Shown piece after piece: positions 4,278 through 24,615 of a stretch of 41,585 nucleotides of DNA. Every line of letters begins with the position of its first letter. Positions within the stretch are counted from its first letter, which is position 1. The stretch comes from SAR116 cluster bacterium AG-325-I21. Lineage in GTDB: Bacteria > Pseudomonadota > Alphaproteobacteria > Puniceispirillales > Puniceispirillaceae. The notes beneath the pieces are model-generated. The model saw nothing but the letters and a program-made list of their open reading frames with translations, was not told where the DNA came from and did not search any database. The stretch is from contig QBYK01000014.1 in the NCBI GenBank assembly GCA_003282865.1, forward strand, positions 1 through 41,585. The letters are read 5' to 3'. The position numbers were made by a program, and so were the translations under genes.

Positions 4278-4354
4278 GGTCCCGTAGCTCATCAGGATAG
4301 AGCGACAGATTCCTAATCTGTAGGTAGGGGGTTCGAGTCCCTCCGGGATCACCA
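4278..4354 (+). tRNA. tRNA-Arg (anticodon CCT)
   Basis: A complete cloverleaf of 77 bases. The acceptor stem GGTCCCG pairs with CGGGATC (one G-U), the D stem is GCTC/GAGC and the anticodon stem ACAGA/TCTGT. The loop TTCCTAA places the anticodon CCT at 4312-4314, and the T arm is GGGGG-TTCGAGT-CCCTC. The discriminator A and CCA end are encoded. It reads AGG arginine codons. It sits about 94 bases before the left boundary repeat of the catabolic island, and tRNA genes are frequent landing sites, but its 3' end is not repeated elsewhere in the window. Confidence 0.96.
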
Positions 4355-4447
4355 TTCGACAGCGCGCTAATCACTATCATGCCAATTTTAACCAGCAATC
4401 ATGATGTGAGGAGGTTATGATAACGTTTTAAAAAAAGCACCTCATTC

Positions 4448-4598
4448 GGCTGGGATATTTGAGCGATTTATTTTTTCTGGTACTCCATCGTAACTGGGTG
4501 CGGCAAGTTTAGCAGCAAGCTGGATATGAAGAAGATTTGGTGACATTTTTGGCAATTGTATCCGAAAGTGATATTGATTATTTGTCTGTTGCTCTGAC
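4448..4598 (+). repeat. Left boundary repeat (diverged copy of the cysQ 5' region)
   Basis: This stretch aligns without gaps to 18051-18201 at a constant offset of 13603. By hand count, 4448-4484 matches at 32 of 37 positions, 4485-4550 at 32 of 66, and 4551-4598 at 35 of 48. The best-conserved block contains TTGA(G/C)C and the shared string TTTTCTGGTACT, and looks like the cysQ promoter; the last part is the beginning of the cysQ reading frame. Together with the right copy it brackets the catabolic island. Confidence 0.75.
4549..4598 (+). pseudogene. cysQ: Truncated cysQ 5' remnant
   Basis: The frame beginning TTG at 4549 lines up with the ATG of the intact cysQ at 18152. Its conceptual product LAIVSESDIDYLSVALT resembles the CysQ start MAIELESEINYLALART (ten of 17 identical if the TTG is read as Met, several others conservative). 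Homology fades near 4598, where the frame runs antisense into the 3' end of the dehydrogenase gene. Its complement supplies the stop codon, and perhaps the last residues, of that dehydrogenase. I read it as the leftover of a cysQ allele cut by acquisition of the island. Confidence 0.65.
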
Positions 4599-5474
4599 CT
4601 CAATATCAAGCCACTCCTCCCAAAGCTTGATCAAGGCACCGTATTCTTCTTCTCCATAGCCCTTGGCCATACCAAGTTCATAGATATGATGCGCAGCGCT
4701 TGCTAGAAATACAGGCACGCCAAGATCCCGAGCAAGCTCAAGGCACAATACGGAATCTTTAGTCGCTAATTCCGTCTTCATACCTCCCGTGAAGTTACCT
4801 GGCAAAACATGCTTTCGCAGCCGGTCATCGATTTGGGCGCTGCGGCCCGAACTCACGGATACGACATTTCCTAAGAGCTCAGGATCGGCGCCTGCTTTTA
4901 CACCGAGAGCAACAGCCTCAGCGAGGGCCACCCAATTGACGTGAGCAAGCATGTTGTTAATAACTTTGAACAACATACCCATGCCAGGGCCACCACAGTG
5001 GAACAGGTTTTTTCCAAAAGCCTCCATTGCGGAACTAAGACGCTGAAATCCTGCCTCGCTGCCACCTACCATAAGAGTGAGCGTTCCAGCTACAGCTCCA
5101 GGAACGCCTCCACTGACAGCAGCATCAAGTAGCTCCCCACCTTGGTTGAGAACCGCAGGAGCGAGTTCTTTAATAAGGCTTGGTGAAACAGTGCTGGTTT
5201 CCGCAATTAACGCGCCTGATTCTATCCCTGCAAGAATGCCGTCGTTACCCAAAATTACTTCACGCGAGATGTTAGGATGCGGCAATGATAGAAAAATGAT
5301 ATCAGCGCCCTTGGCAGCCTCCTTGGGGCTCGTGCAACCCTTTGCGCCTTGCTTGATAATTCCAGTTAATGCATCGGGCGAAACATCATAGGCAGTGATT
5401 GTATGTCCAGCATTGATCAGGTGGCCGCAAATTGGCCCCCCCATATTACCTAGTCCCAGAAATCCAATTTTCAT
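4578..5474 (-). CDS. NAD-dependent beta-hydroxyacid dehydrogenase (3-hydroxyisobutyrate dehydrogenase family)
   Basis: A 298-residue cytosolic oxidoreductase that should interconvert a short beta-hydroxyacid and its semialdehyde with NAD(P). The Rossmann motif GLGNMGGPI is at 6-14, the substrate loop SGGV at 121-124, and the catalytic lysine K170 with N174 lies in FKVINNM. The length is normal for the family. It is the last gene of the minus-strand island block but is separated from dctM by 192 bases, so it may have its own promoter. Base composition differs sharply from its neighbours (34 G+C in row 5041-5100), suggesting a separate origin. Its 3' end overlaps the cysQ remnant. Tartronate semialdehyde reductase is an alternative within the family. 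Confidence 0.85.
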   Translation of the reverse strand: MKIGFLGLGNMGGPICGHLINAGHTITAYDVSPDALTGIIKQGAKGCTSPKEAAKGADIIFLSLPHPNISREVILGNDGILAGIESGALIAETSTVSPSLIKELAPAVLNQGGELLDAAVSGGVPGAVAGTLTLMVGGSEAGFQRLSSAMEAFGKNLFHCGGPGMGMLFKVINNMLAHVNWVALAEAVALGVKAGADPELLGNVVSVSSGRSAQIDDRLRKHVLPGNFTGGMKTELATKDSVLCLELARDLGVPVFLASAAHHIYELGMAKGYGEEEYGALIKLWEEWLDIEVRATDK

Positions 5475-5565
5475 AACAAAAACCCTAATTATTGAACTTT
5501 ATAGTAATTAAAAAAATTCCAGGCTACAACAGTGAGAGCAACTCCATGCAGAAAATTCTATAAAC

Positions 5566-5576
5566 GTAACGGTTAC
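5566..5576. promoter_or_regulatory. Possible operator palindrome GTAAC-G-GTTAC
   Basis: A perfect 5+1+5 inverted repeat lies in the 192-base gap about 92 bases upstream of the dehydrogenase start. The half-site resembles operators of LacI-family regulators, though no such regulator is in the window. It could be chance. Confidence 0.3.
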
Positions 5577-5646
5577 ATTAATGAGCTCCACACCTCAGGG
5601 AAAACCAAAAGACAAGTTCGTTAAGTAGACTTTACACGACATTTAT

Positions 5647-5664
5647 AGAAACATTATTGTTTCT
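5647..5664 (-). terminator. Hairpin just past the TRAP operon stop
   Basis: A perfect 7-bp stem AGAAACA/TGTTTCT with a four-base loop lies immediately downstream of the dctM stop. On the minus strand it lacks a good U tract (the T run is on the plus side), so it may be a weak terminator or an RNA-stabilising hairpin. Confidence 0.35.
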
Positions 5665-5666
5665 TT

Positions 5667-6947
5667 TTAATTTACTAGAAATGTAGAAATTTTTGGAAAT
5701 AACACTATTATCAAAAGCCCAAGTGCTATCACATATACAAAGGGCAAAGCTCCTCTGAATACATTTGCTACCGATTGGCCAGAAATAGCGCTAACTACAA
5801 ATAGGTTCATACCTATTGGCGGCGTTATAACCGCTAATTCCATATTAATCACAAGAATGATACCAAAATGAATAGGATCTATGCCCAGATGGATTAAGGT
5901 TGGCAAAACCACGGGAACAACAACTAAAATAACGGAAATAATTTCAAGGAAGCAACCCAAAACCAATAACATCAAATTGATTGCCAATAAAAACAATAAC
6001 GGGTCTATGTTTGCACTCGTTATAAATTCTGTGAAATCATTAGGTATACGTGTGTACGATAAGATGTAGCTTAAAACAGAGGTAGCCCCCATTATTATTA
6101 AAATTGTTGAGGCCATCGTGCCTGCCCTAACGATGACATCATAAAAGGATTTAAAATCAGTATTTTTGTATATTGTTACAGCGAGTAAGGTAGCTAAAAA
6201 CACAGAAACTGCTGCAGCTTCTGTAGGCGTAAAGATACCTCCGTAAATTCCGCCAAGCACTACAACCGGGAATAAAAACATGGGGAAGCCAAGTAAAAGC
6301 GTCTTTACTGGATTCAAGTCCTTTATTTGAAGTCTGTTATTATCCTTGGTTCGTACCCTATCTCCCATAAAGAACACATAACAAAATAGAAGTGCACCCA
6401 ATATAAATCCTGGCACCATTGCGGAAATAAACAGATCGCCCACTGAAATTTCCACAACCGCTGCATAAACAATAAGCGGCACACTGGGGGGAATCAAAAT
6501 ACCTAATCCTCCGCTGGCAGCAACGAGGCCAACGGAAAATTTTTTCTTATACCCGTTCTCTATTAATTTAGGGATCATGGTTCTGCCAATTGCTACAGCA
6601 GTTGCTACGCTAGAACCACTTATCGCGCTGAAAACCATGATGGCAACAACTGTGACTAACGCTAATCCATTTCGCATTCGGCCAAAAATCAAGTTGCTAG
6701 CATTCACTAAGGCATCAGTTGCTCCACTACGTGATAGAATTTCTGCTGCAAAAATAAAAAAAGGAATACTTACTAAGCTTGACTTGTTTAAAAACCAGAA
6801 AATTGTAGAGCCAGGGATTGATAAATCCATTCCCTCGAGAAACATATACCCCAAACAAGCGGCTAAAAGAGAGAAAGCAATAGGGAGGCCAGACAGCAAA
6901 ATAGGCACAGTACACAATGCAACCAGTAGAGCCGCATAAGTACTCAA
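5667..6947 (-). CDS. dctM: TRAP transporter large permease (DctM)
   Basis: A 426-residue inner-membrane protein forming the sodium-coupled translocation channel of a tripartite ATP-independent periplasmic transporter. It is hydrophobic throughout, with conserved DctM features including the SGSSVATAVAIG stretch near residue 110, GILIPPSVPLIVYA near 150, the FTPTEAAAV segment near 240 and the late VITPPIGMNLF loop. Translation appears to start at TTG (6947), overlapping the dctQ stop by four bases (TTGA), with AAGGA nine bases upstream, so the two permeases are coupled. The gene is AT-rich like its operon neighbours. Confidence 0.93.
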   Translation of the reverse strand: MSTYAALLVALCTVPILLSGLPIAFSLLAACLGYMFLEGMDLSIPGSTIFWFLNKSSLVSIPFFIFAAEILSRSGATDALVNASNLIFGRMRNGLALVTVVAIMVFSAISGSSVATAVAIGRTMIPKLIENGYKKKFSVGLVAASGGLGILIPPSVPLIVYAAVVEISVGDLFISAMVPGFILGALLFCYVFFMGDRVRTKDNNRLQIKDLNPVKTLLLGFPMFLFPVVVLGGIYGGIFTPTEAAAVSVFLATLLAVTIYKNTDFKSFYDVIVRAGTMASTILIIMGATSVLSYILSYTRIPNDFTEFITSANIDPLLFLLAINLMLLVLGCFLEIISVILVVVPVVLPTLIHLGIDPIHFGIILVINMELAVITPPIGMNLFVVSAISGQSVANVFRGALPFVYVIALGLLIIVLFPKISTFLVN

Positions 6948-7450
6948 TGGAAGAATTCCTTTTTTGGTCCTTCTGTTTTTATGTCTATAACTCCCGTAAG
7001 CCTGCCAAGAGCACGCAGACTAACCAAAAAAAAGGACACGGGGATTACCGCCATAATAGGCCAAATTATTACGCCCAAAGAAGAAACTGAAGTTTCATTG
7101 ATACTGTATGAAAATAAAACAGATTTTGTTGAAAATACACCCATAAAAAATGAGATAGTCAGAAGAAAAAAGTCACATATTTTCCATAATGTTAGAGCCT
7201 TCTCCTTAGAAAGCAGGGTATGTATAATATCAATGGATATGTTCTGGCGAAATGCGTCAGCTCTGGAAGTTCCTAAGAAAACCATTGCTATTACCATATA
7301 AATCGAAATCTCATCAATTGAGCTAAAAGATTTTGAAAAAACATATCGTGAAAAAACTTGTGAACAGTGCAAAGCGGCCGCAATGCTTAACAGGCTAGCA
7401 ATTGCGACAGCTTCGACACGACAAAGCCACTGTTCAAAAAAAGTTATCAC
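6944..7450 (-). CDS. dctQ: TRAP transporter small permease (DctQ)
   Basis: A 168-residue membrane protein with four predicted hydrophobic helices, as expected for DctQ, which docks the binding protein onto the large permease. The loop SRYVFSKSFSSIDEIS near residues 33-48 matches the conserved DctQ region (R-Y-V-F then a D-E pair), and FLGTSRADAFRQNISIDII follows. The start is GTG at 7450 with only a weak ribosome site, 38 bases after the dctP stop. It overlaps dctM by four bases. Confidence 0.9.
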   Translation of the reverse strand: MITFFEQWLCRVEAVAIASLLSIAAALHCSQVFSRYVFSKSFSSIDEISIYMVIAMVFLGTSRADAFRQNISIDIIHTLLSKEKALTLWKICDFFLLTISFFMGVFSTKSVLFSYSINETSVSSLGVIIWPIMAVIPVSFFLVSLRALGRLTGVIDIKTEGPKKEFFH

Positions 7451-7488
7451 GTTCAGAGGCTTCTGACATTTACTCGTTATCAGCCACC

Positions 7489-8469
7489 TTAATTTAGTGC
7501 TTTGGCTTTATCCATAAGCGTTTTTACAACTGGATCCATTGATTCATGCACTGAAATCATTGCTTTCTGCCAACGTGCGACCTCCTCTGCAGATGCGGGC
7601 AACACTTTCACCCCATTTTTTTCTGCCTTTTTAATTGAGACGTCAACTTCAGCATAAATATTTTCTTCATTCCACTTTGTGGCTTTTCTTGCCGCTTTCA
7701 AAACAGCTTCTTGATCGGCGGCTGGAAGTTTATCAAAAGCCTTTTTGTTCATGGCGAATATGTAACCACCATACACAAGCTTCACATCTGTGATAAATTT
7801 TAACACTTCATCTAATTTTATTGATACAGCAAAGCTAGGTGTCGTAACCGCCCCATCAACAACCCCATTCTTCAACGCCAAATAAACTTCGTTGCCTGGT
7901 ATTACTGTCGGGTTTGCTCCAAGCGCGGCAAGCATACTTTCGAGGGTAGCGGAAGGATAAGTTCGAATTTTCAATCCTTTTAGGTCAGACAGAGTGTTAA
8001 CTTTCTTTTTCGACGTAAACACAACCGTTGGGGTTTCATACCAAAAACCCAGTGGCTTCAGACCCTTTGCTTCCAAATCAGAGAATAAAGACGCACCTAC
8101 TTCCCCTCGCATAGCTTTCATCAAATGTTCATAGCTGCGAAAAACCAAAGGTGTTGTCAGAAGCTTAGCTTTTGGAGTTACTGCTTCGTAATAACTTATA
8201 AAAGGTACAATAGCTTCAACCTGCCCACGAATTGCAGCGGAAACCTCTTGTTTTGATGGTATTAAAGACGCGCTCGGATACGTCTCGACTTTGACTCCAT
8301 TTGTCAAACTTTCAAGTTCTTTTTTAAAGATCGCTACCGTTCTTGCTTTCAAATGTGTATCAGGCGTTTCATACGCTACACGAATGGTGTCTGCAGATGC
8401 AAAGTTCATAGCGCTTAAACATAAGCCAATGGCCAGCGATAATACAGAAAATTCTTTTAATTTCAGCAT
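7489..8469 (-). CDS. dctP: TRAP transporter substrate-binding protein (DctP)
   Basis: A 326-residue periplasmic solute receptor. A typical signal peptide ends near FASA-D (cleavage predicted after residue 26), and the mature part begins DTIRVAY. The segment LKGLKIRTY contains the arginine that in DctP proteins binds a substrate carboxylate, which suggests a carboxylate ligand. A strong ribosome site AGGAGGGG precedes the ATG. It heads the transporter genes within the operon below hyuA. High expression relative to the permeases is plausible, as in other TRAP operons. The ligand is presumably the substrate or product of the HyuAB step; this is inferred from context only. Confidence 0.93.
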   Translation of the reverse strand: MLKLKEFSVLSLAIGLCLSAMNFASADTIRVAYETPDTHLKARTVAIFKKELESLTNGVKVETYPSASLIPSKQEVSAAIRGQVEAIVPFISYYEAVTPKAKLLTTPLVFRSYEHLMKAMRGEVGASLFSDLEAKGLKPLGFWYETPTVVFTSKKKVNTLSDLKGLKIRTYPSATLESMLAALGANPTVIPGNEVYLALKNGVVDGAVTTPSFAVSIKLDEVLKFITDVKLVYGGYIFAMNKKAFDKLPAADQEAVLKAARKATKWNEENIYAEVDVSIKKAEKNGVKVLPASAEEVARWQKAMISVHESMDPVVKTLMDKAKALN

Positions 8470-8530
8470 TTTACCCCTCCTGTTTTAAAACTGTAATTTA
8501 ACTGCGTCAAATGAATTCTTAAATTATCGA

Positions 8531-10561
8531 TCAAATTTGCAAAAGAATCAACTCGCCCGCTTTACCAACAACACACTTCCAATCTTTTGGTATCACGGTA
8601 GTGGCCGACATTTCTTCCACTATTGCAGGTCCGATTATTTCAATATCAGGTGAAATATCTTCTCTTGACCAGATGGGAACCTTAGTTTTACGACCATCAG
8701 AAAAAACCTTTCGGTATTTAACCCGGCCTTCCTTTTGTTCGAAAGTAGCCTTTTGCCACTTCGGATAAATCATTGGGATAGTGGCTACAACTCGTATATT
8801 TACCAGCTCCAAATTACGGCCTTGATCTGTCCTGCCGTACTCTAATTTAAAGGCCTTTTCGAACATATTTTTGATATTAAGCATAGTTTCTTCTATACCC
8901 ACTTTGACAATCAATTCATGGGCTTGACCTACGTAACGCATATCAAATTGGAATTCAAAATTTATTTTACTGGTGTTTTGACCCTCATTCTCAAAACTCT
9001 TTGTCAATGATTTAGCCAACTGCTCTAATTCAAGTTTAACGGAAATTAATCTTTTTTCAGTTAGCTCTACCAGAACTGTTTTTGCCAAGTCCTTTTTTAA
9101 AGGCGAACACAAAGTTCCTAAAGCAGAAAAGGCACCTGGAATTGGAGGAACTATTACTTTTTTTATACCGAGTTCTACAGCCACTAATGCTGCATGCAAA
9201 GGCCCTGCCCCTCCGTAACTCATCAATGCAAAATTTCTCGGATCAAAGCCCCTTGTCGCAGAAATTTCATGTACAGCAGTGCAAAATTTTGCAACGGCTA
9301 ACTTCAAAACCCCCTCAGCCATCTCCATTTCCGATAAATTGGCTGTTTCTGCGATACTTTTCATCGCACGAAACGCTTTTATTTCATCTAGGGATAAAGA
9401 ATTTCCCATTTCTTGTTTTGGTCCAAGCCTACCTAAAATAAGGTTTGCATCGGTTAATGTAGGTAGTTTTCCTCCTTTTCCGTAAGAAGCAGGGCCGGGA
9501 TTAGAGCCAGCACTTTCCGGACCTACTTGCAAAGCCCCTCCTGCGTCGATGCTGGCAATACTACCTCCTCCAGCTCCAATTGTATGAATATCGAGTTGCG
9601 GGGTTTTGATTACCATACCCTCAAGAATTGTTTCATTTTTGAGAGGGAAGCCATAATTGGCTATTAAAGCCACGTCGCTACTTGTTCCACCAACATCAAA
9701 TGCTATTACATTTCTGCATTTGATTTCTCTAGCGAGGTGAACGCATGCCGCAACGCCTGCGGCTGGACCAGACAAAATTGTTCTAAGTGGTTCTCTGGAT
9801 ACCGCGTCTGTACTGAGCAATCCCCCATGCGAGCCAACTGTATAAAAATTGCTTTTTTTCCACACTCTCTTTATTTCGATACTCAAAGCCTCCGTATATT
9901 TACTCATGATTGGCATGACATAAGTGTTTATTGAACAGGCGGCAAACCTCTCAAACTCCCGAATTTCATTTAATACCTCTGTGGAGATCGAGACGAAATC
10001 AAAAAACTTGCTCAGTGTTTTTTTAGCTTGGATTTCGTGCTTTGCGTTTTTATAGCTATTGATAAAACCAACGGCAACGGCCTCCACATTTGTCTTTGCG
10101 AGCGAAATTGCTAACTCTTCCAGCTGTTTTTCATCTAATTTCTTTTCAGATTTTCCATCCACAGAAATGGTTTCACTGCACTCAAACCGGTACTCTCTTG
10201 AAACCAGCGGTTTTGGTCGCTTGAAGAAAGGATCATATAAAGTACGAGGCACCAACCTAGTTGTTCTTCCAACCTCTAAAACGTCTCTGAACCCTTCCGT
10301 TGTAAAAAAAGCAATTTTTGCTCCTTTTCGTTCTAATAATGCATTTGTTGCTACCGTCGTCCCATGTAAAATAAGATAAAGATTATCAGGGCTTACCTTT
10401 GCCTTGTTAAGAGCTGCGAGCACTGCTTTTTCGGGGCTTTCAGGCATTGAAGGAACTTTAAAAGCGCAGAATTCATAATTTTTGAGATCATAAAGCACTA
10501 GGTCGGTAAAAGTGCCACCAACGTCGATGCCAACGAAAATTTTCTTGTCACTTTTGGGCAT
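8531..10561 (-). CDS. hyuA: Hydantoinase/oxoprolinase family protein, subunit A
   Basis: A 676-residue ATP-dependent cyclic amide hydrolase subunit (HyuA/N-methylhydantoinase A type) of the actin-like ATPase superfamily, which phosphorylates the ring amide to drive opening. GIDVGGTFTDLVL at 11-23 is the phosphate-1 motif, followed by GTTVATNALLERKGA, LSGPAAGVA, the second nucleotide motif FDVGGTSSDVAL and SYGGAGPLHA. Length matches HyuA. HyuB lies 31 bases upstream in the same operon, so they should form one complex. Relatives act on hydantoins, 5-oxoproline, caprolactam or, with a third subunit, acetone; no gamma subunit of acetone carboxylase is present. The specificity is not resolved. Confidence 0.9.
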   Translation of the reverse strand: MPKSDKKIFVGIDVGGTFTDLVLYDLKNYEFCAFKVPSMPESPEKAVLAALNKAKVSPDNLYLILHGTTVATNALLERKGAKIAFFTTEGFRDVLEVGRTTRLVPRTLYDPFFKRPKPLVSREYRFECSETISVDGKSEKKLDEKQLEELAISLAKTNVEAVAVGFINSYKNAKHEIQAKKTLSKFFDFVSISTEVLNEIREFERFAACSINTYVMPIMSKYTEALSIEIKRVWKKSNFYTVGSHGGLLSTDAVSREPLRTILSGPAAGVAACVHLAREIKCRNVIAFDVGGTSSDVALIANYGFPLKNETILEGMVIKTPQLDIHTIGAGGGSIASIDAGGALQVGPESAGSNPGPASYGKGGKLPTLTDANLILGRLGPKQEMGNSLSLDEIKAFRAMKSIAETANLSEMEMAEGVLKLAVAKFCTAVHEISATRGFDPRNFALMSYGGAGPLHAALVAVELGIKKVIVPPIPGAFSALGTLCSPLKKDLAKTVLVELTEKRLISVKLELEQLAKSLTKSFENEGQNTSKINFEFQFDMRYVGQAHELIVKVGIEETMLNIKNMFEKAFKLEYGRTDQGRNLELVNIRVVATIPMIYPKWQKATFEQKEGRVKYRKVFSDGRKTKVPIWSREDISPDIEIIGPAIVEEMSATTVIPKDWKCVVGKAGELILLQI

Positions 10562-10592
10562 TTTCTTTTTTCATTTATTGAACGCAAGCGTT

Positions 10593-12485
10593 TTAGTACC
10601 GATGAAGGACATCAATCCTCATTTCATTTGAGTAAAAAAGTTCAGAAGCTATAACAACTTTTTCTTTTGTCATTTTGTCAATTAAACCTGATATCCATAC
10701 TCGTATCGTCGGACCATCTTTTGCTATCAGTTCAATTAAATCATTTTCTTTTACCTTTAATTTATTAGCTAAACAGGTGCTTAAAATGCCTTGGGAAAAC
10801 TCTAGCGTGTCACATTTTTCAACTTCTACTGTTTCCATATTGATTGTATATTTCATCGCACCCTTGTCTGTGACATACCCTTGTATTTTATCTGATTGTA
10901 AGGCCTTCAACGGACGATCGCTAGGGCAACCCCAACCGCCGCCTCCAGATGATTCCATCTTCACTAAATCAAATTTCTTGAGTTGAAAATTACCCACCTT
11001 ACCGGGAAAGTCGCTAATTTCTAATATTTTACCATTTCTAATTACACTGAAACGATTGGGTGCCCCTGAGCCTCCTCCGGCCACGCCACTAGGTGGCACT
11101 ATATTTCTATCAGAAAGAACCGATAACCTAGCCCCGCTTGCCAAAACCTCTATCTCTCTTTTTAAACCGACGCCTCCTCTGAAACGTCCAATCCCTCCGC
11201 TATCGGGTCTAATGCCAGACGACCTAACTTTTAATGGAAAAATAGTTTCAATTACTTCGGTTGACTGTATTGAAACATTTTCACCCTCGTTGAAAGCTCG
11301 AACTGCAACATTGCCATCACTTCCGTGCCATGCTCCGGTCCCGCCAGATGGGTACTCGTAAAAAATAAAATCGCTTGTCCCGATATAGGTATGATTTGAC
11401 GTTCCCCTCACCTCGCCGGTGATTGATTCTGGGATTACTTTACCCAGCGCTCCCATAACTGCGGAGTCACAAGCTGATCTCACTTCATTAAATCCACCAC
11501 ACGGGGCTGGAGCACTGGCATTAACTATCGAATTGTTCGGTAAAGTGACTTCGATTGCTCGGAGTGTACCAGATGTAATTGAGCCTTTTGGATCCAAAAA
11601 GGATTTCATTATTGTCAGAACAGAAGTTTTTGCTATTGCTGGTCCTACATTCAAGGGTGCTTCCACCTGAGATGAACTGCCTGAAAAATCTACGTTCAAA
11701 CTATCATCTTTTATAGAAATTTTGGCTTTTACTGCGAGTGGATGTTTCGTTTTTCCATTCCCATCAAGATACCCCACGTGCGAATAAATTCCATTGGGGA
11801 GTTTGTCGATAGAATTTCTTATACGCCTTTCACTCATATCTAAAATGCGGTGCATCGAATTACGAACTACTTCAAGAGTGTATTTTTTGCATAATTTTTT
11901 TAAGCGCTTCTCTGCAACCCTTATTATTCCAATTACTGAAAAAAAGTCTGAAACTGCTTCCTTTGTGACCCGCACGTTGTCAAAGATAAGCCGCATTACT
12001 TCACTTTTTCCAGACTTTGGAATCTTTAAAAAATTGAGTCTCAATCCCTCCTGTGTTATTTCCGTAACGTTGCCATTTAGTGACCCAGGAGACATGCCCC
12101 CAATGTCTCCCCAGTGAGAGCGTATAACAATATAAAATGTTTTACATGCATTGATGACAACGGGATAAATCACAGCTACATCATTTAGATGAGTTCCACC
12201 AGTATAAGGATCATTGTGAAGAAGCATCTCATCTTTATCAAAATTGCTGTGTATTTTTTTTGCTGTTTCTATTGCCGTAGCAATAGGCAAAATATGAAAT
12301 GGGTGGTCTTCACCAGACTCGGCGACAAGTTGTCCTTCGCCATTTAATAAAACACAAGAAAAATCATATCCTTCATAAATAATAGAACTGTAGGAGGATC
12401 TCACCATAGCCCTCCGCATTTCACGCACGATTGAGCTAAGGGCCTCGTTAATAATGGCAACTGTGGTGAGATCAATTTTTTTCAA
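10593..12485 (-). CDS. hyuB: Hydantoinase/oxoprolinase family protein, subunit B
   Basis: A 630-residue partner of HyuA that hydrolyses the activated amide. Family hallmarks are LVAESGEDHPFHILP, the metal and active-site region LLHNDPYTGGTHLNDV near residues 88-103, SHWGDIGGMSPGS, NVGPAIAKTS, and the glycine-rich GGVGLKREIEV and SSGGGGWGCP segments. It starts at TTG (12485) with AAGGA eight bases upstream. It lies between the aminotransferase and hyuA, all on the minus strand with gaps of about 30 bases. It is strongly AT-rich, as in row 12001-12060 (20 G+C of 60). Confidence 0.9.
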   Translation of the reverse strand: MKKIDLTTVAIINEALSSIVREMRRAMVRSSYSSIIYEGYDFSCVLLNGEGQLVAESGEDHPFHILPIATAIETAKKIHSNFDKDEMLLHNDPYTGGTHLNDVAVIYPVVINACKTFYIVIRSHWGDIGGMSPGSLNGNVTEITQEGLRLNFLKIPKSGKSEVMRLIFDNVRVTKEAVSDFFSVIGIIRVAEKRLKKLCKKYTLEVVRNSMHRILDMSERRIRNSIDKLPNGIYSHVGYLDGNGKTKHPLAVKAKISIKDDSLNVDFSGSSSQVEAPLNVGPAIAKTSVLTIMKSFLDPKGSITSGTLRAIEVTLPNNSIVNASAPAPCGGFNEVRSACDSAVMGALGKVIPESITGEVRGTSNHTYIGTSDFIFYEYPSGGTGAWHGSDGNVAVRAFNEGENVSIQSTEVIETIFPLKVRSSGIRPDSGGIGRFRGGVGLKREIEVLASGARLSVLSDRNIVPPSGVAGGGSGAPNRFSVIRNGKILEISDFPGKVGNFQLKKFDLVKMESSGGGGWGCPSDRPLKALQSDKIQGYVTDKGAMKYTINMETVEVEKCDTLEFSQGILSTCLANKLKVKENDLIELIAKDGPTIRVWISGLIDKMTKEKVVIASELFYSNEMRIDVLHRY

Positions 12486-12518
12486 AATTAAAATCCTTTT
12501 CCCAAGCTTGCCAAAAAG

Positions 12519-13886
12519 TTACATTTTCTTTATTGCTTTACAAGCTCGGTTAGTTGCTTCAAACGTTGCCTCTAAATCGTCTTCAGAGTGTTTTATCGAG
12601 ATAAACCGTCTATTCCCTGGCAATACAAATATTCCTTGATGCAGTAACTCCGCTTCAAACAACGACATTTTTTTTGCGTCTGCAAGCAATAATTCTCGCC
12701 AATTCGAGGGCTCAGTCTCAGTGAAAAGCATATGCCACATAGGTCCCTCTCCAAACACCAAAACATTTAAACCCTCGTCAAAAAATATTTTTCTCAAACC
12801 TTCTTTCAACTTTTCAGCCATCAAAAAAGTTTTCTCATACAATCTGGAATCCTCTTCGAGTACGTCTAATGTGGCGATCCCGGCAGCGCACCCCAGCATA
12901 TGACCCTGCAATGTGCCATTCTGGTATACGTAATCGGGTTGTCCCTTATTAGAGGGATTGGCTTGATCCATAATGTCAGCTCTTCCGGCAACCAATCCTA
13001 CGGGGAGGCCTCCGCCTAAAATTTTTGCGTAAGTCGCCAAATCTGGTTTAATTGAAAAAAATTCTTGAGCGCCCCCGAGTCCTAATCTGAATCCAGTAAC
13101 AACCTCATCCAAAATCATCAGAACTCCGTATTTTGTGCATAAGTCCCTGACGTTTTGTAAAAAATTATCGTGGGGATAAATTATGCGCTGGATAGGTTCG
13201 ATAATCACAGCAGCGATTTCACCACTATAATTTTTAAACAGATCTTCGAGCGCAGAAGGATCGTTGTAAGGACAGATGAGTGCTAATTCCCTTACAGCCC
13301 TTGGAATACCTGATGTGTCAGGTGAACCATTAGGAAAATTTAATGGATTTTTTGGGGTAGTGCTCATTTGCACATAGTCATGGCCTCCATGGTAAGCACC
13401 CTCAAATTTAACGATTCTTTCACGCTTCTTAAATGCTCTTGCCAGACGTATTGCATGAAATGTCGCATCAGAGCCTGAAGTAGTGAATCTCATCTTTTCT
13501 GCACAAGGTATTATTTTTTCTAAGCGTTGCGCTAAATCCAAAGCTAATTCATTTAGGTAGGCAAAAAAATGTGCACCATGACCGATTTGATCTTTTATTG
13601 CTTTTTCAATACTTGGATGTGAATGCCCAAGGAAGAATGTTCCGGAGCCCAAAACATAGTCTATGTATTCGTTATTTGAGGTGTCCCAAAATCTTGAGCC
13701 TTTGCCATGACTGAATACAAATTTGGATTTTTCAGCCAAAGCATTGCCACCAAGCGCCCCTCCTGGCAGTAGACGCTTTGCATCGTTGAAAGATTTTTTT
13801 TCTCTTTCGCTCAATTTTTTTCGGCCAATTTTATTTGGTCGAGAAGACTTATCAGTCGTTAGAATTGCAAATTCATTTCGTTCCAT
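12519..13886 (-). CDS. Class III PLP aminotransferase (glutamate-1-semialdehyde aminomutase subfamily)
   Basis: A 455-residue fold-type I PLP enzyme. The cofactor lysine is K288 in TYAKILGGGLPVG, the LDEVVTGFR motif with the pyridinium-contacting aspartate D260 is at 259-267, and FTTSGSDATFHAIRLARAF and GAYHGGHD bind the phosphate and ring. It is close to HemL in style, but SGSDATF and YHGGHD differ from HemL proper. The catabolic operon context argues for an amino-group transfer on the ring-opened amino acid rather than haem synthesis. It is the first gene of the minus-strand block, preceded by the divergent promoter region. Substrate unknown. Confidence 0.85.
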   Translation of the reverse strand: MERNEFAILTTDKSSRPNKIGRKKLSEREKKSFNDAKRLLPGGALGGNALAEKSKFVFSHGKGSRFWDTSNNEYIDYVLGSGTFFLGHSHPSIEKAIKDQIGHGAHFFAYLNELALDLAQRLEKIIPCAEKMRFTTSGSDATFHAIRLARAFKKRERIVKFEGAYHGGHDYVQMSTTPKNPLNFPNGSPDTSGIPRAVRELALICPYNDPSALEDLFKNYSGEIAAVIIEPIQRIIYPHDNFLQNVRDLCTKYGVLMILDEVVTGFRLGLGGAQEFFSIKPDLATYAKILGGGLPVGLVAGRADIMDQANPSNKGQPDYVYQNGTLQGHMLGCAAGIATLDVLEEDSRLYEKTFLMAEKLKEGLRKIFFDEGLNVLVFGEGPMWHMLFTETEPSNWRELLLADAKKMSLFEAELLHQGIFVLPGNRRFISIKHSEDDLEATFEATNRACKAIKKM

Positions 13887-14043
13887 TTTCTATTTGGCTC
13901 ACCCTTATTAACAGACAACCTTTATCAAACGCCCTATCTACATGTTAAAAAAAGATACGAATGCTATCAAGATTATTATATAATTTTATCTTAATAAGAA
14001 TTACTTTTATTTTTTTGAACCTCAAAGCACAAAGGAGAAATAC
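13887..14043. promoter_or_regulatory. Divergent promoter region of the catabolic island
   Basis: This 157-base, very AT-rich gap separates the minus-strand aminotransferase/HyuBA/TRAP block from the plus-strand tautomerase block. A perfect TATAAT on the plus strand at 13979-13984 could be the -10 box of the plus operon, though no good -35 box sits 17 bases before it. AAAGGAGA just before 14041 is the ribosome site of the tautomerase gene. No regulator gene is adjacent. Confidence 0.45.
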
Positions 14044-14433
14044 ATGCCCACTTCGAAGATTTATGGACTTAAAACCAATTTAAATCCCATAAAGGAAGAA
14101 CTGTCAGCAGTAATAAATTCATGTGTTTCAAACGCTCTCAATTTTCCAAAAGAGAAACGGTTACAACGTTTTTTTCCTATGGAAAAAGAAGATTTTTATC
14201 ATGGTGAGGGAAGATCAGATAAGTACACAATTATCGAAATCGCTTTATTTGAGGGGCGTAGCAAAGAAACCATAAGAGAGTTGATTACTTCTTTGTACTC
14301 AGAAATAGAAAAAAATTTTGGGATATCAAAAGTTGATGTTGATATACTAGTTTTAGAACTGCCAAAACACAATTGGGGTCTCCAAGGTGCACTAGGTGAC
14401 GAACAAAACCTAGGTTACAAGGTTGAAATTTGA
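14044..14433 (+). CDS. Tautomerase family protein (4-oxalocrotonate tautomerase superfamily)
   Basis: A 129-residue protein. Met-Pro at the start (MPTSKIYG) leaves the N-terminal proline that acts as the catalytic base in tautomerases. The pattern ALNFPKEKRLQRFF, then RSDKYTIIEIALFEGRS, then VDILVLELPKHNWG matches the longer Tautomerase_2-like family (about 130 residues, fused beta-alpha-beta units). It probably isomerises an enol/keto or dehalogenates/hydrates an unsaturated acid in the island pathway. A strong AAAGGAGA ribosome site precedes it. It heads the plus-strand operon, 70 bases before the aldehyde dehydrogenase. The family is recognised by pattern; the reaction is not known. Confidence 0.75.
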   Translation: MPTSKIYGLKTNLNPIKEELSAVINSCVSNALNFPKEKRLQRFFPMEKEDFYHGEGRSDKYTIIEIALFEGRSKETIRELITSLYSEIEKNFGISKVDVDILVLELPKHNWGLQGALGDEQNLGYKVEI

Positions 14434-14503
14434 ATAGGGAATAAAGCAAAATTGATCATTAAAAAAAATTATTTTGAAATTGTTATTTGTAGCGGGAGAC
14501 GTA

Positions 14504-16006
14504 ATGAAATTGGAAAAATTTAGAACTGAATTTTCGGGTGATTTTCACAATTTCATAAATAATGAATTTGTTCCACCAGTTTCAAATGAATATCTGGATA
14601 CCGAAGATCCATACACAGGAAAAAAGTGGGCGAACATTCCAAAAAGTAACGCTAGCGACGTAAATAAAGCAGTTGAGTCGGCGAAAAACGCGAGGGAGTC
14701 GTGGGCTGCAACCAATCCAGTTAAGAGAGCTAAGTTGTTATTCAGATTAGCCGATCTGATAGACAAAAATTATGATGAATTGGCAAGTATTGAAGTAAGG
14801 GATAATGGCAAACTCTATGCAGAAATGGTTGGGCAAACACAGTACATAGCGGAATACTACCGTTATTACGCGGGATTAGCTGATAAAATTGAAGGGAGAG
14901 TTATCTCTACAGATAAATTAAATATGTTTAATTACACTCTGTTTGAACCATTAGGAATTATTGGGATGATAACTCCATGGAATTCCCCCCTGATGCTTCT
15001 TACATGGAAGCTAGCACCCGCCCTCGCTGCTGGAAATGTAGCTGTAATAAAACCATCAGAATTTACTTCAAGTTCTACCGTGGTATTTATGAATTTGATC
15101 AAAGACGCAGGGTTCCCGCCGGGTGTGGTTAATGTGGTTTGTGGTCTTGGTATAGAAGCTGGAACAGCAATTGTTAACCATCCAGACATAGCAAAAATAG
15201 CATTCACTGGTTCAGATCAATCTGGTCAAATTATTTACGAAGCTGCCGCAAAAGGAATTAAACATGTTTGCCTTGAACTTGGTGGAAAATCGCCCAATAT
15301 CGTTTTTGAGGACGCTGACTTAGATGCGGCAGTGGCAGGAGTTATCTCTGGAATCTTTGCCGCCAGTGGTCAAACTTGTATAGCTGGATCACGGCTTTTA
15401 GTACAATCTTCGATCTACAAAAAATTTATGACCAAACTCTTAGATGTTGCATCTAAGGCAAAGGTGGGAAATCCTATGCTCCCAGATACTAATGTTGGGC
15501 CTGTGGCAACCAAACCACAGTTCAAAAAAGTCCTTGATTATATTGATATTGGAAAATCAGAAGGCGCCAAATGCCTTCTTGGTGGTGACGTCTTCAAAGG
15601 AGACGGGCCACAAGGCGGGCTAATGGTACAACCCACAATTTTCACAGAATGCAATAACAATATGAGAATAGCGAGAGAAGAGATTTTTGGTCCAGTTCTA
15701 TCGACGATAATATTCGATACAGAGGATCAAGCTTTTTCAATTGCAAATGATACTGCCTTCGGTCTGGGGGCAGGAATTTGGACAAATGATATAGGAAAAG
15801 CACATAATGGTGCGAGCCGTATAAACGCAGGAACTGTTTGGGTAAATACCTACCGAGTTGTGAGCTACACCTCTCCTTTTGGAGGATACAAACGGAGCGG
15901 AATTGGAAAAGAAGGAGGTATAGAAGCAATAATGGAGTATATGCAAACTAAATCTGTATGGATTTGTACGAAACCAAACACGGATAATCCGTTTGTTATG
16001 AAATAG
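14504..16006 (+). CDS. NAD(P)-dependent aldehyde dehydrogenase
   Basis: A 500-residue ALDH-superfamily enzyme oxidising an aldehyde to a carboxylate. Active-site residues are N160 in TPWNSPL, E259 in LELGGKSPN and the nucleophile C292 in ASGQTCIAGSR; FTGSDQSG near 235-242 holds the cofactor. I chose ATG 14504, with GGGAG five bases upstream, over the in-frame TTG at 14474, which has no ribosome site. In the operon it would oxidise the semialdehyde left by the aminotransferase. It resembles betaine or gamma-glutamyl aldehyde dehydrogenases, and the substrate cannot be fixed from sequence. Confidence 0.92.
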   Translation: MKLEKFRTEFSGDFHNFINNEFVPPVSNEYLDTEDPYTGKKWANIPKSNASDVNKAVESAKNARESWAATNPVKRAKLLFRLADLIDKNYDELASIEVRDNGKLYAEMVGQTQYIAEYYRYYAGLADKIEGRVISTDKLNMFNYTLFEPLGIIGMITPWNSPLMLLTWKLAPALAAGNVAVIKPSEFTSSSTVVFMNLIKDAGFPPGVVNVVCGLGIEAGTAIVNHPDIAKIAFTGSDQSGQIIYEAAAKGIKHVCLELGGKSPNIVFEDADLDAAVAGVISGIFAASGQTCIAGSRLLVQSSIYKKFMTKLLDVASKAKVGNPMLPDTNVGPVATKPQFKKVLDYIDIGKSEGAKCLLGGDVFKGDGPQGGLMVQPTIFTECNNNMRIAREEIFGPVLSTIIFDTEDQAFSIANDTAFGLGAGIWTNDIGKAHNGASRINAGTVWVNTYRVVSYTSPFGGYKRSGIGKEGGIEAIMEYMQTKSVWICTKPNTDNPFVMK

Positions 16007-16044
16007 CAAAGTCGAGTTCAGGGGTTCTTTTTTAGGAGGGCAAG

Positions 16045-16752
16045 TTGTTAGACATTGATTTAATTAGAAGAGAGATCAAGGCCTGTGTTTTTGACCAATA
16101 TGGAACTATTGTGGACATGCAGGGTTTTCTAACTGAATATTCGGCACCATTTCTAAAAGAAAAAGGTTGGGAGGGAAATCCAAATAGATTTGTAACGTGG
16201 TGGCGGAGAACGCATTTTGAAAATTCAATGATTGATGCCCTTTGTGATAGGGGACATACACCATATCGAGAGATTGGCCATAGAGCGGTCTCATTTACAT
16301 TGGAGAGAGCTGGCATAGAGCACACGAGCCAAGAGGTTCAAGATTTGGTCTCTGCCATTGAACGAATCACCCCTTTTCCTGAGGTGCCTGGTGCGCTAGC
16401 GAAGTTGCATAAAGATTACAAACTTGCCATCTTATCAAATGGTGACAGGGACATGCTTGAGGCAGCAAAACCCTATATTGGTTACAAATTCGATATGACA
16501 ATCTCTGTGCAAGAAGCGGGTTATTTTAAACCGCATAGGAAAACATATGAAAAGGCGGCCGAATTACTCGGACTTGAACCGATGGAATGTCTATTCGTGG
16601 CTAACCATACTTTTGACTGTGTGGGAGCAAAAGCTGCGGGTATGCGAACGGTTTTTATTGATCGACGAAAACGTCCATTTGGTCAAACACACCATGCTCC
16701 CGACTTGATTGTCTCAGATATGCAGGAATTAGCGGATTTAATGAGACCTTGA
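16045..16752 (+). CDS. HAD-superfamily hydrolase (haloacid dehalogenase type II-like)
   Basis: A 235-residue HAD enzyme. The nucleophile D16 is in VFDQYGTIVD, motif II is LSNGD, the conserved lysine is in YFKPHRKTY and the last motif is VANHTFDCVGAKAAG. The arrangement resembles 2-haloacid dehalogenases, in which Asp attacks the alpha carbon; a phosphatase role is the alternative. It starts at TTG 16045 with a perfect AGGAGG five bases upstream. It has visibly higher G+C than the ALDH and CoA-transferase on each side. The CoA-transferase ATG follows its stop by one base, so the two are translationally linked. Confidence 0.8.
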   Translation: MLDIDLIRREIKACVFDQYGTIVDMQGFLTEYSAPFLKEKGWEGNPNRFVTWWRRTHFENSMIDALCDRGHTPYREIGHRAVSFTLERAGIEHTSQEVQDLVSAIERITPFPEVPGALAKLHKDYKLAILSNGDRDMLEAAKPYIGYKFDMTISVQEAGYFKPHRKTYEKAAELLGLEPMECLFVANHTFDCVGAKAAGMRTVFIDRRKRPFGQTHHAPDLIVSDMQELADLMRP

Positions 16753-16753
16753 G

Positions 16754-17899
16754 ATGAATAAAAAAGTTGAAGCTTCTTTTTTTAAACATTTATTAGTTGT
16801 TTCGATTGAGCAAGCAGTTGCAGCGCCCATTTGCAGCATGCGATTTGCGGACGCTGGAGCTCGCGTCATAAAAGTTGAACCGACTATAGGAGAAACCGCA
16901 AGACACTATGATAATAGCATTGAGGGCGAAAGTGCATATTTTTCGTCCTTGAACAGAGGTAAAGAAAGCTTAGCGTTAAATTTGCGAAAAGATCACGATT
17001 TTTCTCTTCTGAAAAAAATTCTTTCAAAAACTGATGTTTTTATAAGAAATACTAGCCCAGGTTCAATGGCCAATATCGGGCTTGGAGCTTCCCAACTACT
17101 CAACGAATTCAAGAGACTTATAGTTGTAGACCTTGTTGGCTATGGGCAAGACACCGAATACTCTCATATGAAAGCATACGACTTGCTGGTTCAGGCCGAA
17201 AGTGGACTTTGCAGTATAACAGGAAGCCCCAATGAACCCTCAAAAGTGGGCATATCCATCGCTGATATGGGAACGGGAATGAATGCCTATTCAGCGATTT
17301 TAGAAGCGCTTTTGGAGAGAGAGTCTAATGGCACCGGTAAAGCATTGGAAATCACAATGTTTGACACCGTGGCAGAGTGGATGTCAGTACCACTTCTTCA
17401 TTATGAACATGCAAATATAGAAACAAAACGGCACGGAATGGCTCATTCTTCAATATATCCTTATCGACCATATAGTTGTTCAGACGGGGACGTATTAATA
17501 GCGGTTCAGAATAATGATCAATGGAAAATTTTTTGTGACATCGTTTTATCAAAGCCCATGTTGGCCGACAATAAACTGTATAAAGATAATGCATCAAGAG
17601 TTGAAAATAGAATTTTACTTGATCAAGAAATTGACGAAGTTTTTAAGGACCTAACCACTAACACATTGAAGAAATTGCTAAAAAAATCTGGTATCGCATT
17701 TGGGCAAATCAATACTGTAAAAGAGTTAAGTAAACATTTAGCTCTAAAAAAACAAGTTATAGAAATTAATAAGAAAAAAATTACGACACCCGCCTCCCCT
17801 CTAGTGAAAGAAAATGGTGTTGTCAAAAGAATTCCCAAAATAGGCGAACATAACTCAAAAATAAATGAGGAGTTTAGTAAGGAAAATCCATCGGGCTGA
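16754..17899 (+). CDS. Class III CoA-transferase (CaiB/BaiF family)
   Basis: A 381-residue transferase that moves CoA between carboxylates. The N-terminal part (VVSIEQAVAAPICSMRFADAGA, then VIKVEP) and LNRGKESLALNL match the family. The catalytic aspartate is D171 in SIADMGTGMNAYSAILEAL, following LLVQAESGLCSITG. It would activate the carboxylic acid made by the pathway, sparing ATP. It is AT-rich (19 G+C in row 17641-17700). It is the last gene of the plus operon. A long T run near 17921-17938 follows but lacks a clear stem. Confidence 0.88.
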   Translation: MNKKVEASFFKHLLVVSIEQAVAAPICSMRFADAGARVIKVEPTIGETARHYDNSIEGESAYFSSLNRGKESLALNLRKDHDFSLLKKILSKTDVFIRNTSPGSMANIGLGASQLLNEFKRLIVVDLVGYGQDTEYSHMKAYDLLVQAESGLCSITGSPNEPSKVGISIADMGTGMNAYSAILEALLERESNGTGKALEITMFDTVAEWMSVPLLHYEHANIETKRHGMAHSSIYPYRPYSCSDGDVLIAVQNNDQWKIFCDIVLSKPMLADNKLYKDNASRVENRILLDQEIDEVFKDLTTNTLKKLLKKSGIAFGQINTVKELSKHLALKKQVIEINKKKITTPASPLVKENGVVKRIPKIGEHNSKINEEFSKENPSG

Positions 17900-18050
17900 A
17901 TTTACAAACACATTTCCGATTTTTTTTTTGGGGTTTTTTATACGTTAACGGATATTTAGGATTTGTTATGTATTTTGCGATCCGATATAGGCATGGAAGA
18001 AACTTACAAATTTCATCTTTTTAAGATGGTTTTAGGAAAACGCCTTGCTT

Positions 18051-18201
18051 GGCTGGAATGGTTGACCGATTTATCTTTTCTGGTACTTTATAACGGCTGT
18101 TCTCCCCATGCATTCTAGCAAATTCGACACTAAGATAATTTAGCGTGGTATATGGCAATTGAATTAGAAAGTGAAATTAATTATCTCGCATTGGCTCGTA
18201 C
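18051..18201 (+). repeat. Right boundary repeat (intact cysQ promoter and 5' end)
   Basis: Right-hand partner of the repeat at 4448-4598, gap-free at offset 13603 and about two thirds identical overall. The 21-base core at 18067-18087 differs from 4464-4484 at a single position. Here the repeat leads into a complete cysQ gene. Confidence 0.75.
18062..18089 (+). promoter_or_regulatory. Candidate cysQ promoter
   Basis: TTGACC (18062-18067) and TACTTT (18084-18089) are separated by 16 bases. Both boxes lie in the part best conserved between the two boundary repeats (the left copy has TTGAGC and TACTCC), whereas the following leader has drifted to about half identity. That conservation supports a promoter role. 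Confidence 0.45.
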
Positions 18202-18976
18202 ACTAGTTAATCCAGTGCGAGAGGCGGGCCAGGCTATCATGGATATTTACCAGCTCGGTGCATCTGCAAACATAAAGGATGATGGCAGCCCGGTATCCAA
18301 AGCTGACCTGGCTTCAGAGGCGATCTTATTACCTGCGATATCAGTTGTAGCACCAGCTATTCAAATTGTTTCCGAAGAAAATGCTACCAGTCATGGATTT
18401 GCAGTTACTGACCGCTTTTTTTTGGTTGACCCGCTAGATGGTACAAAAGAATTTTTAAAGGCAGATAATAAAGGTGCATTCACTGTCAACATCGGCCTTG
18501 TCAAGGATGAGGTGCCTGTGATGGGCGTCGTTTATGCCCCGGCTTTAGACCGACTTTTTTTTGGTGCGCAGGATGCAGGCGCGTTTGAAATGCACGGAAA
18601 TGTTTGCCGCAAGATTGAAGTCCGGAAGCCGCCTGCAGACGGTTGGACTGCGGTCGCCAGTGAGTCTCATCGAGATAAGGCTACCAATGATTGGTTGCAA
18701 GCCCATGGTATTGGCAACACCATTGCAATTGGGTCATCTTTAAAATTTTGTTTGATTGCTGCCGGTGAAGCGGATGCCTATCCTCGGTATGGTCCAACAA
18801 TGGAGTGGGACACGGCTGCGGCGGATGCTATATTGCGAGCTGCGGGTGGCAGCGTTTTGACCGCGAATGGACACGTGCTCGGTTATGGTAAACCGGGCTA
18901 TCGTAATACTTCGTTTTTTGCCTTTGGTCGTGGATCACCTGCTTTATTCCAAAAGAAGATACTCTATGATTATTGA
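18152..18976 (+). CDS. cysQ: 3'(2'),5'-bisphosphate nucleotidase CysQ
   Basis: A 274-residue inositol-monophosphatase-family enzyme that removes the 3' phosphate of PAP from sulfate assimilation. Metal ligands are visible in SEENA (EE at 75-76), VDPLDGTKEF (93-101) and WDTAAADAIL in the C-terminal part. Length is normal. The ATG has no clear ribosome site. A second, truncated copy of its promoter and first codons lies at the other end of the island. Its last 11 bases overlap the start of ligJ, suggesting joint translation although the functions look unrelated. Confidence 0.9.
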   Translation: MAIELESEINYLALARTLVNPVREAGQAIMDIYQLGASANIKDDGSPVSKADLASEAILLPAISVVAPAIQIVSEENATSHGFAVTDRFFLVDPLDGTKEFLKADNKGAFTVNIGLVKDEVPVMGVVYAPALDRLFFGAQDAGAFEMHGNVCRKIEVRKPPADGWTAVASESHRDKATNDWLQAHGIGNTIAIGSSLKFCLIAAGEADAYPRYGPTMEWDTAAADAILRAAGGSVLTANGHVLGYGKPGYRNTSFFAFGRGSPALFQKKILYDY

Positions 18977-24275: not shown

Positions 24276-24520
24276 CGTCTGTCGCGGAACCTGAGAGATT
24301 AGCCGGTCCAAGCCAAGGTTTGAGCTACCTCGTTTTGTTAATTGAACCGGATACTATCGGGCCCAATTCCTCGCCAGTTTTCCCCGTCGGTGGACACTGC
24401 CGTGTCACTTTCCAGAGTGCTCACATGAAAGAGTACGTTTACCTGAGAGTTTCTGGGGGTTTTGCTCCTACGGTGTTGCCAAAGTGGTGCGATTTCCACT
24501 GACATGCTCTCCCCTCTCAT
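24276..24520 (-). promoter_or_regulatory. Tandem glycine riboswitch
   Basis: Two aptamer copies on the minus strand. Each ends with the hallmark CTCTCAGGT (complement at 24441-24449 and 24289-24297), 152 bases apart. The first opens with GGGAGAG and holds ACCGTAGGAGCAAAA; the second opens with CTCTGGAAAG, holds ACCGACGGGGAAAA and closes with GACAGACGGGG. This is the usual cooperative glycine sensor that turns on gcv operons. The aptamers look intact although the gene behind them is a remnant. Confidence 0.9.
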
Positions 24521-24615
24521 GTTTGGAACTTTTTTAAATTAAGGTATTTTTCAGTGCGGGGCAAGCCGCTGAACTAAAGAGACTTTATGAATCTAAAAAG
24601 GATTGGAAAATGTAC

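What the first reader, a model, noticed from the sequence alone, without database searches (positions are those of the whole stretch)
4448..18201. Catabolic island bounded by diverged direct copies of the cysQ promoter and 5' end
The left and right copies align gap-free at offset 13603 over 151 bases (99 identities by hand count). The putative promoter block is 32/37 identical and the coding part 35/48, with mostly conservative amino acid changes. A truncated cysQ remnant therefore sits by the tRNA-Arg and the intact cysQ 13.6 kb away. This records how the island entered between tRNA-Arg and cysQ. The divergence argues against a fresh target-site duplication and for recombination with a cysQ allele from another lineage, or an old event. 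No integrase or transposase is present.
Basis: partly seen in the sequence, partly recalled or inferred. Interest (0 to 1): 0.8.

Follow-up and report, generated by a model that had tools for sequence, protein, structure and literature searches.

The report
Gene island scarred by duplicate cysQ start
In an uncultured marine SAR116 bacterium, a 13-kb block of imported catabolic genes sits between a tRNA gene and cysQ and has left behind a dead copy of the start of cysQ, a scar that suggests how it entered; islands like this are ordinary, but the scar is unusually readable.

Summary
In detail: 4448-4598 and 18051-18201 match ungapped at 99 of 151 bases, and 0 of 1000 dinucleotide shuffles reach the gapped score. 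The left copy is a dead remnant of the native tRNA-Arg/cysQ spacer plus roughly 16 codons of cysQ. The right copy precedes and starts the intact cysQ. Of 16 genus genomes held, 3 show the empty site (tRNA-Arg then cysQ), 6 (this one included) carry differing inserts there, and 7 could not be resolved. The left copy matches sister G014 over 240 bases from the tRNA outward (185/240). In the upstream part the live right copy is the more divergent one (27 unique changes against 11, p=0.014), opposite to what an in-situ duplication predicts; in the codon part it is not (5 against 10, p=0.30). I favour one-sided homologous recombination: donor DNA with the island plus its own cysQ 5' end crossed over inside cysQ and joined illegitimately on the left. 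The foreign origin of the right arm is favoured, not proven (quartet AU test, alternatives p 0.11-0.15). It is a flexible genomic island with an HFIR-like junction, not a new system. The tRNA-Arg itself is an integrase site in relatives, but not here.

The parts
4278..4354 (+). tRNA-Arg(CCT), intact, left neighbour of the insertion
   Evidence: ARAGORN, Rfam; 100% identical over 77 bases in G008, G011, G014, G015 and G005
4355..4548 (+). native tRNA-Arg/cysQ spacer (old cysQ upstream region), now cut off from its gene
   Evidence: aligns with the empty site of G014 (185/240 over 4355-4594); tRNA-proximal part also aligns with G006
4549..4598 (+). remnant of the first ~16 codons of cysQ (ATG has become TTG); joint with the island at about 4590-4600
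4578..5474 (-). beta-hydroxyacid (3-hydroxyisobutyrate/tartronate-semialdehyde type) dehydrogenase; its stop codon (4578-4580) and last codons lie on the antisense strand of the cysQ remnant
   Evidence: Pfam PF03446/PF14833, NCBIfam (below equivalog cut-offs); overlap read
5667..8469 (-). TRAP transporter DctM (5667-6947), DctQ (6944-7450), DctP (7489-8469)
8531..12485 (-). hydantoinase/oxoprolinase A (8531-10561) and B (10593-12485), nearest NCBIfam models caprolactamase alpha/beta, below cut-off
12519..13886 (-). class-III aminotransferase, glutamate-1-semialdehyde aminomutase-like
14044..14433 (+). tautomerase (Tautomerase_2)
14474..16006 (+). aldehyde dehydrogenase
16045..16752 (+). HAD hydrolase, type II haloacid dehalogenase model over cut-off
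   Evidence: TIGR01428 156.8 bits, cut-off 125.4
16754..17899 (+). CaiB-type CoA-transferase
   Evidence: below equivalog cut-offs
18020..18151 (+). right copy of the cysQ upstream region, the live one; divergent allele
18152..18976 (+). intact cysQ; codons 1-66 have raised synonymous divergence from G006, later codons do not
   Evidence: TIGR01331

Best explanation
SHOWN: the ancestral order was DEAD-box helicase - tRNA-Arg - cysQ; a 13.4-kb foreign catabolic island now lies between; the left end still carries the native spacer and about 16 codons of native cysQ; a second, diverged upstream region plus 5' end starts the intact cysQ at the right end. INFERRED: a linear DNA fragment from a related SAR116 lineage that already had this island upstream of its own cysQ entered the cell. 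Its cysQ end paired with the resident cysQ and crossed over inside the gene (somewhere past codon 16, perhaps near codon 66-100). The cell thus kept a working cysQ with a donor upstream region and 5' end, and the old upstream region and first codons stayed behind as a scar. This is the topology of homology-facilitated illegitimate recombination (HFIR).
For: Empty site in 3 relatives. The left copy runs unbroken with the native spacer from the tRNA on (185/240 with G014), while homology of the right copy starts only about 60 bases into the spacer, so the left is the resident copy. In the upstream 119 columns the live right copy has 27 unique changes and the dead left copy 11, with G014 as reference (p=0.014); left-right identity (72/119) is lower than left-G014 (93/119). 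Quartet columns: left+G006 against right+G014 4, left+right 0, left+G014 0, of 80 columns. Synonymous divergence from G006 is highest of 33 right-flank windows in cysQ codons 1-48 (0.47) and falls to 0.16-0.20 from codon 97, while the DEAD-box codons nearest the left end show 0.09: a one-sided border peak. Codons 1-66 against 67-269: W-G006 p=1.4e-4, G006-G014 p=0.47, W-G014 p=0.16 (the cut was chosen). The left joint falls within a few codons of the end of the dehydrogenase gene.
Against: In the codon part the right copy is not the more divergent one (right-unique 5, left-unique 10, p=0.30), and over all 175 columns the difference is not significant (32 against 21, p=0.17). The right copy is a little closer to G006 in the codons (45/55 against 42/55). 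The AU test does not reject the other two quartets (p 0.11-0.15). The change-point scan in cysQ is not significant (133 of 2000 permutations). Left-flank genes (MFS 0.52, urtE 0.48) reach divergences as high as cysQ codons 1-48, and G006-G014 is also high there (0.42, second of 58 windows), so the segment is not exceptional for these lineages. HFIR products in the laboratory averaged ~1 kb inserted and ~1 kb deleted (PMC3240628, passage); this is 13.4 kb with a small deletion. No donor was found.
Confidence: 0.5

Rival explanations
1. Two-step history: the scar was formed earlier in another strain (or by an earlier, smaller insertion), and the whole block tRNA - remnant - island - cysQ 5' part was later imported by ordinary double homologous recombination between the conserved flanks, as proposed for replacement flexible genomic islands.
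For: The site turns over often: 6 of 16 genus genomes carry different inserts, 3 are empty. Raised synonymous change at the right border is the mark described for such exchanges (PMC4033161, abstract and passages).
Against: No peak on the left: DEAD-box codons 1-48 differ from G006 at pS 0.09 and from G014 at 0.12. It still needs an illegitimate joint to make the scar in the first place.
Confidence: 0.2
2. A site-specific element recombined at the cysQ 5' end and carried its own cysQ upstream region and first codons, restoring the gene (as recalled for SXT-type elements at prfC); its integrase has since been lost.
For: The anatomy (old 5' end displaced to the far side, new one supplied) fits. 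An integrase element does sit at the neighbouring tRNA-Arg in G004.
Against: No recombinase among the island proteins scanned and no PF00589 match on the contig. Raised divergence reaches past codon 16, whereas a site-specific crossover at codon 16 predicts native sequence from there on (weak). No comparable cysQ repeat at the left end of G004's insert (scores at or below shuffle means); in G006, G009 and G010 the left/right alignments were scored without a shuffle control and stay undecided.
Confidence: 0.12
3. In-situ duplication: the insertion itself duplicated about 185 bases of target, and the copies have diverged since.
For: Simplest geometry for flanking direct repeats; the AU test does not exclude left+right as sisters (p 0.11-0.15).
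Against: 0 of 4 informative quartet columns join left and right; left and right differ more from each other than either does from G014 (110/175 against 131/175 and 120/175); the upstream part of the live copy changed more than that of the dead one.
Confidence: 0.1
4. An island integrated at the tRNA-Arg by an integrase, with the cysQ repeat a later accident.
For: tRNA-Arg is split at about nt 38-46 in G004, G006 and G010, and G004 has an integrase 4.3 kb from it.
Against: In the window the tRNA is intact, no 11-mer of it recurs anywhere in the window, and 240 bases of native spacer separate it from the island.
Confidence: 0.04

Closest known systems
Homology-facilitated illegitimate recombination (HFIR; Streptococcus, Acinetobacter, Pseudomonas, E. 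coli)
   Same: one homologous end, one illegitimate end, resident sequence replaced between them (PMC3240628, abstract and passages)
   Different: insert here is 13.4 kb with a small deletion against ~1 kb and ~1 kb on average; known here only from a scar
Displacement of T6SS effector genes in Vibrio cholerae leaving orphan immunity genes
   Same: incoming block anchored by a homologous stretch, old gene part pushed aside and kept as remnant; HFIR-like mechanism proposed (PMC5361080, passages)
   Different: there the anchor is upstream and whole immunity genes survive; here the anchor is cysQ and only a dead 5' fragment survives
Flexible genomic islands of aquatic bacteria exchanged by homologous recombination
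   Same: same chromosomal site with different gene sets; raised synonymous change at the border (PMC4033161, abstract and passages)
   Different: the peak is seen on one side only here, and the cargo is catabolic rather than surface structures
tRNA-linked cargo islands, including tycheposons
   Same: island beside a tRNA; relatives G004, G006, G010 show a split tRNA-Arg with foreign tRNA copies or pieces
   Different: in the window the tRNA is untouched and no recombinase was found; tycheposon features known here from passages of PMC10872708 only

Membership tests
Flexible genomic island | same locus empty or filled with different genes in relatives | tested here: met
   3 empty, 6 occupied, 7 unresolved of 16 genus genomes
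Flexible genomic island | foreign composition or gene relationships | tested here: met
   GC 0.34-0.43 in windows from 5501 to 18000 against 0.45-0.50 in the flanks; the first gene (4501-5500) is 0.486, like the flank. Only 3 island proteins were searched in relatives
HFIR product | homologous recombination at one end | tested here: inconclusive
   divergent cysQ 5' end and one-sided synonymous peak; quartet not significant; change-point scan not significant
HFIR product | illegitimate joint at the other end, often with 3-10 bp microhomology | not testable with these tools
   needs the donor's sequence beyond the joint; no donor found
HFIR product | deletion of resident DNA between the ends, ~1 kb on average | tested here: inconclusive
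   at most part of cysQ between codon ~16 and the crossover was exchanged
tRNA-integrated element / tycheposon | island attached to the tRNA, tRNA end repeated at the far side | tested here: not met
   no 11-mer of the tRNA elsewhere in the window
tRNA-integrated element / tycheposon | tyrosine recombinase in the element | tested here: not met
   0 of 11 own-genome PF00589 matches on this contig
Element integrating in a gene's 5' end and supplying a new one | crossover at the att core: native sequence directly after the repeat | tested here: inconclusive
   raised divergence of codons 19-66 from G006

The most novel reading that the evidence does not exclude
The tRNA-Arg/cysQ interval of this genus is a two-door acquisition site: integrases enter at the tRNA, and linear DNA enters at cysQ, whose 5' end acts as a replaceable homologous handle, so each island arriving by the second door also swaps the upstream region of a core sulfur-metabolism gene.
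Probability: 0.12. Interest if true: 0.5.

Novelty: new member of a known kind. Interest (0 to 1): 0.3.

Why it matters
Most islands without an integrase give no hint of how they arrived. Here the old 5' end of a core gene was left beside the tRNA, so the resident and incoming alleles can be compared, and the direction and likely type of recombination become testable in an uncultured ocean lineage. It also marks the tRNA-Arg/cysQ interval as a repeated insertion site in SAR116.

Tried and rejected
Chance match: rejected. tRNA-borne integration of the window's island: rejected. A recent target-site duplication: disfavoured. Donor search: HyuB in 61 family genomes and a sample of 385 class genomes, CoA-transferase and dehydrogenase in 136 order genomes, dehydrogenase in 385 class genomes, dehydrogenase and cysQ in viral contigs; no donor of the whole island. 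The best relative is G318 with HyuB, aminotransferase, HyuA and TRAP genes in a row at 36-56% identity.

Chimeric assembly considered: the two copies are only 63% alike over 175 columns, so collapsed repeats are unlikely, and the genome has no second cysQ beyond a 33% paralogue. Not tested on reads.

Quartet ML failed at first because the tree file was overwritten and was rerun. In one search the panC and BKACE rows were misaligned (internal stop codons in the fetched fragments were dropped by the aligner); they are disregarded and were redone with X at those codons for the alignment only. No paper on this locus turned up: 'Puniceispirillum' + 'tRNA-Arg' gave 1 unrelated listing, 'genomic island' + 'cysQ' + 'tRNA' + 'integration site' gave 0, and the SAR116 phylogenomics paper PMC8547437 holds no occurrence of 'genomic island', 'flexible' or 'recombination'.
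Full report
Observation. The two copies are real: 99/151 ungapped at offset 13603, next best placement 65/151, and 0 of 1000 dinucleotide shuffles reach the gapped score of 384 (maximum 262). Each copy finds the other as the only further place in the own genome at E<=0.01. The right copy belongs to an intact CysQ; the left lies just after an intact tRNA-Arg(CCT).

Where it is. The genome is a SAR116 bacterium in the same genus as Candidatus Puniceispirillum records (titles; window = G000:C14). I identify G006 with isolate AG-390-P06, G014 with AG-447-A06, G011 with FRAM18_bin087, G008 with ERR2098371_bin.27, G010 with AH-135-F23, G005 with AH-135-E14 and G009 with BS307-5m-G12 by equal contig length and content.

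The site in relatives. DEAD-box - tRNA-Arg - cysQ without insert: G014, G011, G008. Occupied: the window (13.4 kb), G006 (asparagine synthase between two tRNA-Arg genes), G009 (about 2 kb), G010 (about 3.6 kb between DEAD-box and cysQ), G004 (53.5 kb from tRNA to cysQ) and G005 (44.3 kb, tRNA and cysQ on one contig). Unresolved: G001, G002, G003, G007, G012, G013, G015 (cysQ ortholog not found, on another contig than the tRNA, contig end, or other gene order).

The island. Eleven proteins: a beta-hydroxyacid dehydrogenase, a TRAP transporter, hydantoinase/oxoprolinase A and B, a class-III aminotransferase, a tautomerase, an aldehyde dehydrogenase, a HAD hydrolase and a CaiB-type CoA-transferase. 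GC is 0.34-0.43 against 0.45-0.50 around it, except for the first gene, 0.486. Three of its proteins were sought in relatives and none has a close one there: HyuB at most 31% (61 family genomes), CoA-transferase at most 45% (136 order genomes), dehydrogenase only itself at E<=1e-60 (136) and at 1e-75 (385 class genomes). In the class sample G318 has HyuB, aminotransferase, HyuA and TRAP P, Q and M on one strand at 36-56%. A pathway taking up and opening a lactam- or hydantoin-like compound is a guess from family names.

Which copy is native. The left copy continues from the tRNA through the spacer into cysQ exactly as in G014 (185/240), and its tRNA-proximal part aligns with G006. The right copy's homology begins only about 60 bases into the spacer. 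Upstream of cysQ (119 columns) left-G014 is 93, right-G014 77, left-right 72; right-unique 27 against left-unique 11, p=0.014. A dead copy that is closer to the sister's live one than the live copy is argues against duplication in place. Against this: in the codons right-unique is 5 and left-unique 10 (p=0.30), overall 32 against 21 (p=0.17), and the right copy is slightly nearer G006 there (45/55 against 42/55), as decay of the left copy would give. Quartet columns are 4:0:0 for left+G006, but AU leaves the alternatives at p 0.11-0.15.

Borders. Synonymous difference to G006 in cysQ is 0.47 in codons 1-48, the highest of 33 right-flank windows, and 0.16-0.20 from codon 97 on; on the left the DEAD-box codons nearest the tRNA show 0.09. 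Codons 1-66 against the rest: p=1.4e-4 for W-G006, 0.47 for G006-G014, 0.16 for W-G014, with the cut chosen after seeing the data. The unbiased change-point scan gives 133 of 2000, and left-flank genes reach 0.48-0.52, so this is suggestive only. The left joint lies at about 4590-4600: the stop codon and last few codons of the island's dehydrogenase are read from the antisense strand of the cysQ remnant (read by eye), while its family domains end at residues 284-287. An abrupt joint on the left and a homologous, blurred border on the right are what one-sided homologous recombination would leave.

Mechanism and standing. I commit to HFIR-like entry at 0.5: the anatomy is shown, the donor allele and the two kinds of joint are inferred. 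The large insert is unlike the laboratory average (PMC3240628, passage). A close published parallel is displacement with retained remnants in Vibrio T6SS loci (PMC5361080, passages); variable segments in E. coli were also attributed largely to illegitimate recombination (PMC2884548, abstract and passages). Exchange of flexible islands by homologous recombination with raised border substitutions is described for aquatic bacteria (PMC4033161, abstract and passages). Integration into the 5' end of a gene with supply of a new one (SXT at prfC) is recalled, not looked up.

Side result. In G004 the neighbouring tRNA-Arg is split: nt 3-40 at C1:1786220-1786257 and nt 20-77 at 1795635-1795692, with another tRNA-Arg at 1786378-1786454 and a Phage_integrase match (64.3 bits) at 1790800-1791339 between them. 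G006 and G010 keep 5' pieces ending at nt 38-46. The tRNA is therefore an integrase site in the genus, a different door from the one used in the window, where no 11-mer of the tRNA recurs.

Noticed in passing
G004:C1:1786220-1795692 (L169, L180, L200): tRNA-Arg(CCT) split into a 5' piece (nt 3-40) and a 3' piece (nt 20-77) 9.4 kb apart, with another tRNA-Arg and a tyrosine recombinase between them: an integrative element at the same locus.
   Followed up: partly
L032:4304-6779 (G006): An asparagine synthase gene lies between two direct ~138-base repeats, each with a complete non-native tRNA-Arg(CCT); the native tRNA survives only as a degenerate 5' piece, so a foreign tRNA seems to have taken over.
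   Followed up: partly
L090:13428-13890 (G010): Native tRNA-Arg reduced to a 5' piece, and an inverted 5' half of a second tRNA-Arg nearby; ARAGORN finds no intact tRNA in this stretch.
   Followed up: partly
L032:6780-6852 (G006): The cysQ upstream region is about 120 bases shorter than in G014 (73 against 194 bases from tRNA to cysQ), so another insert at this site also altered the cysQ upstream region.
   Followed up: no
24278-24524, - strand: Two glycine-riboswitch aptamers in tandem; the one nearer 24278 barely passes its threshold (32.3 against 32 bits).
   Followed up: no
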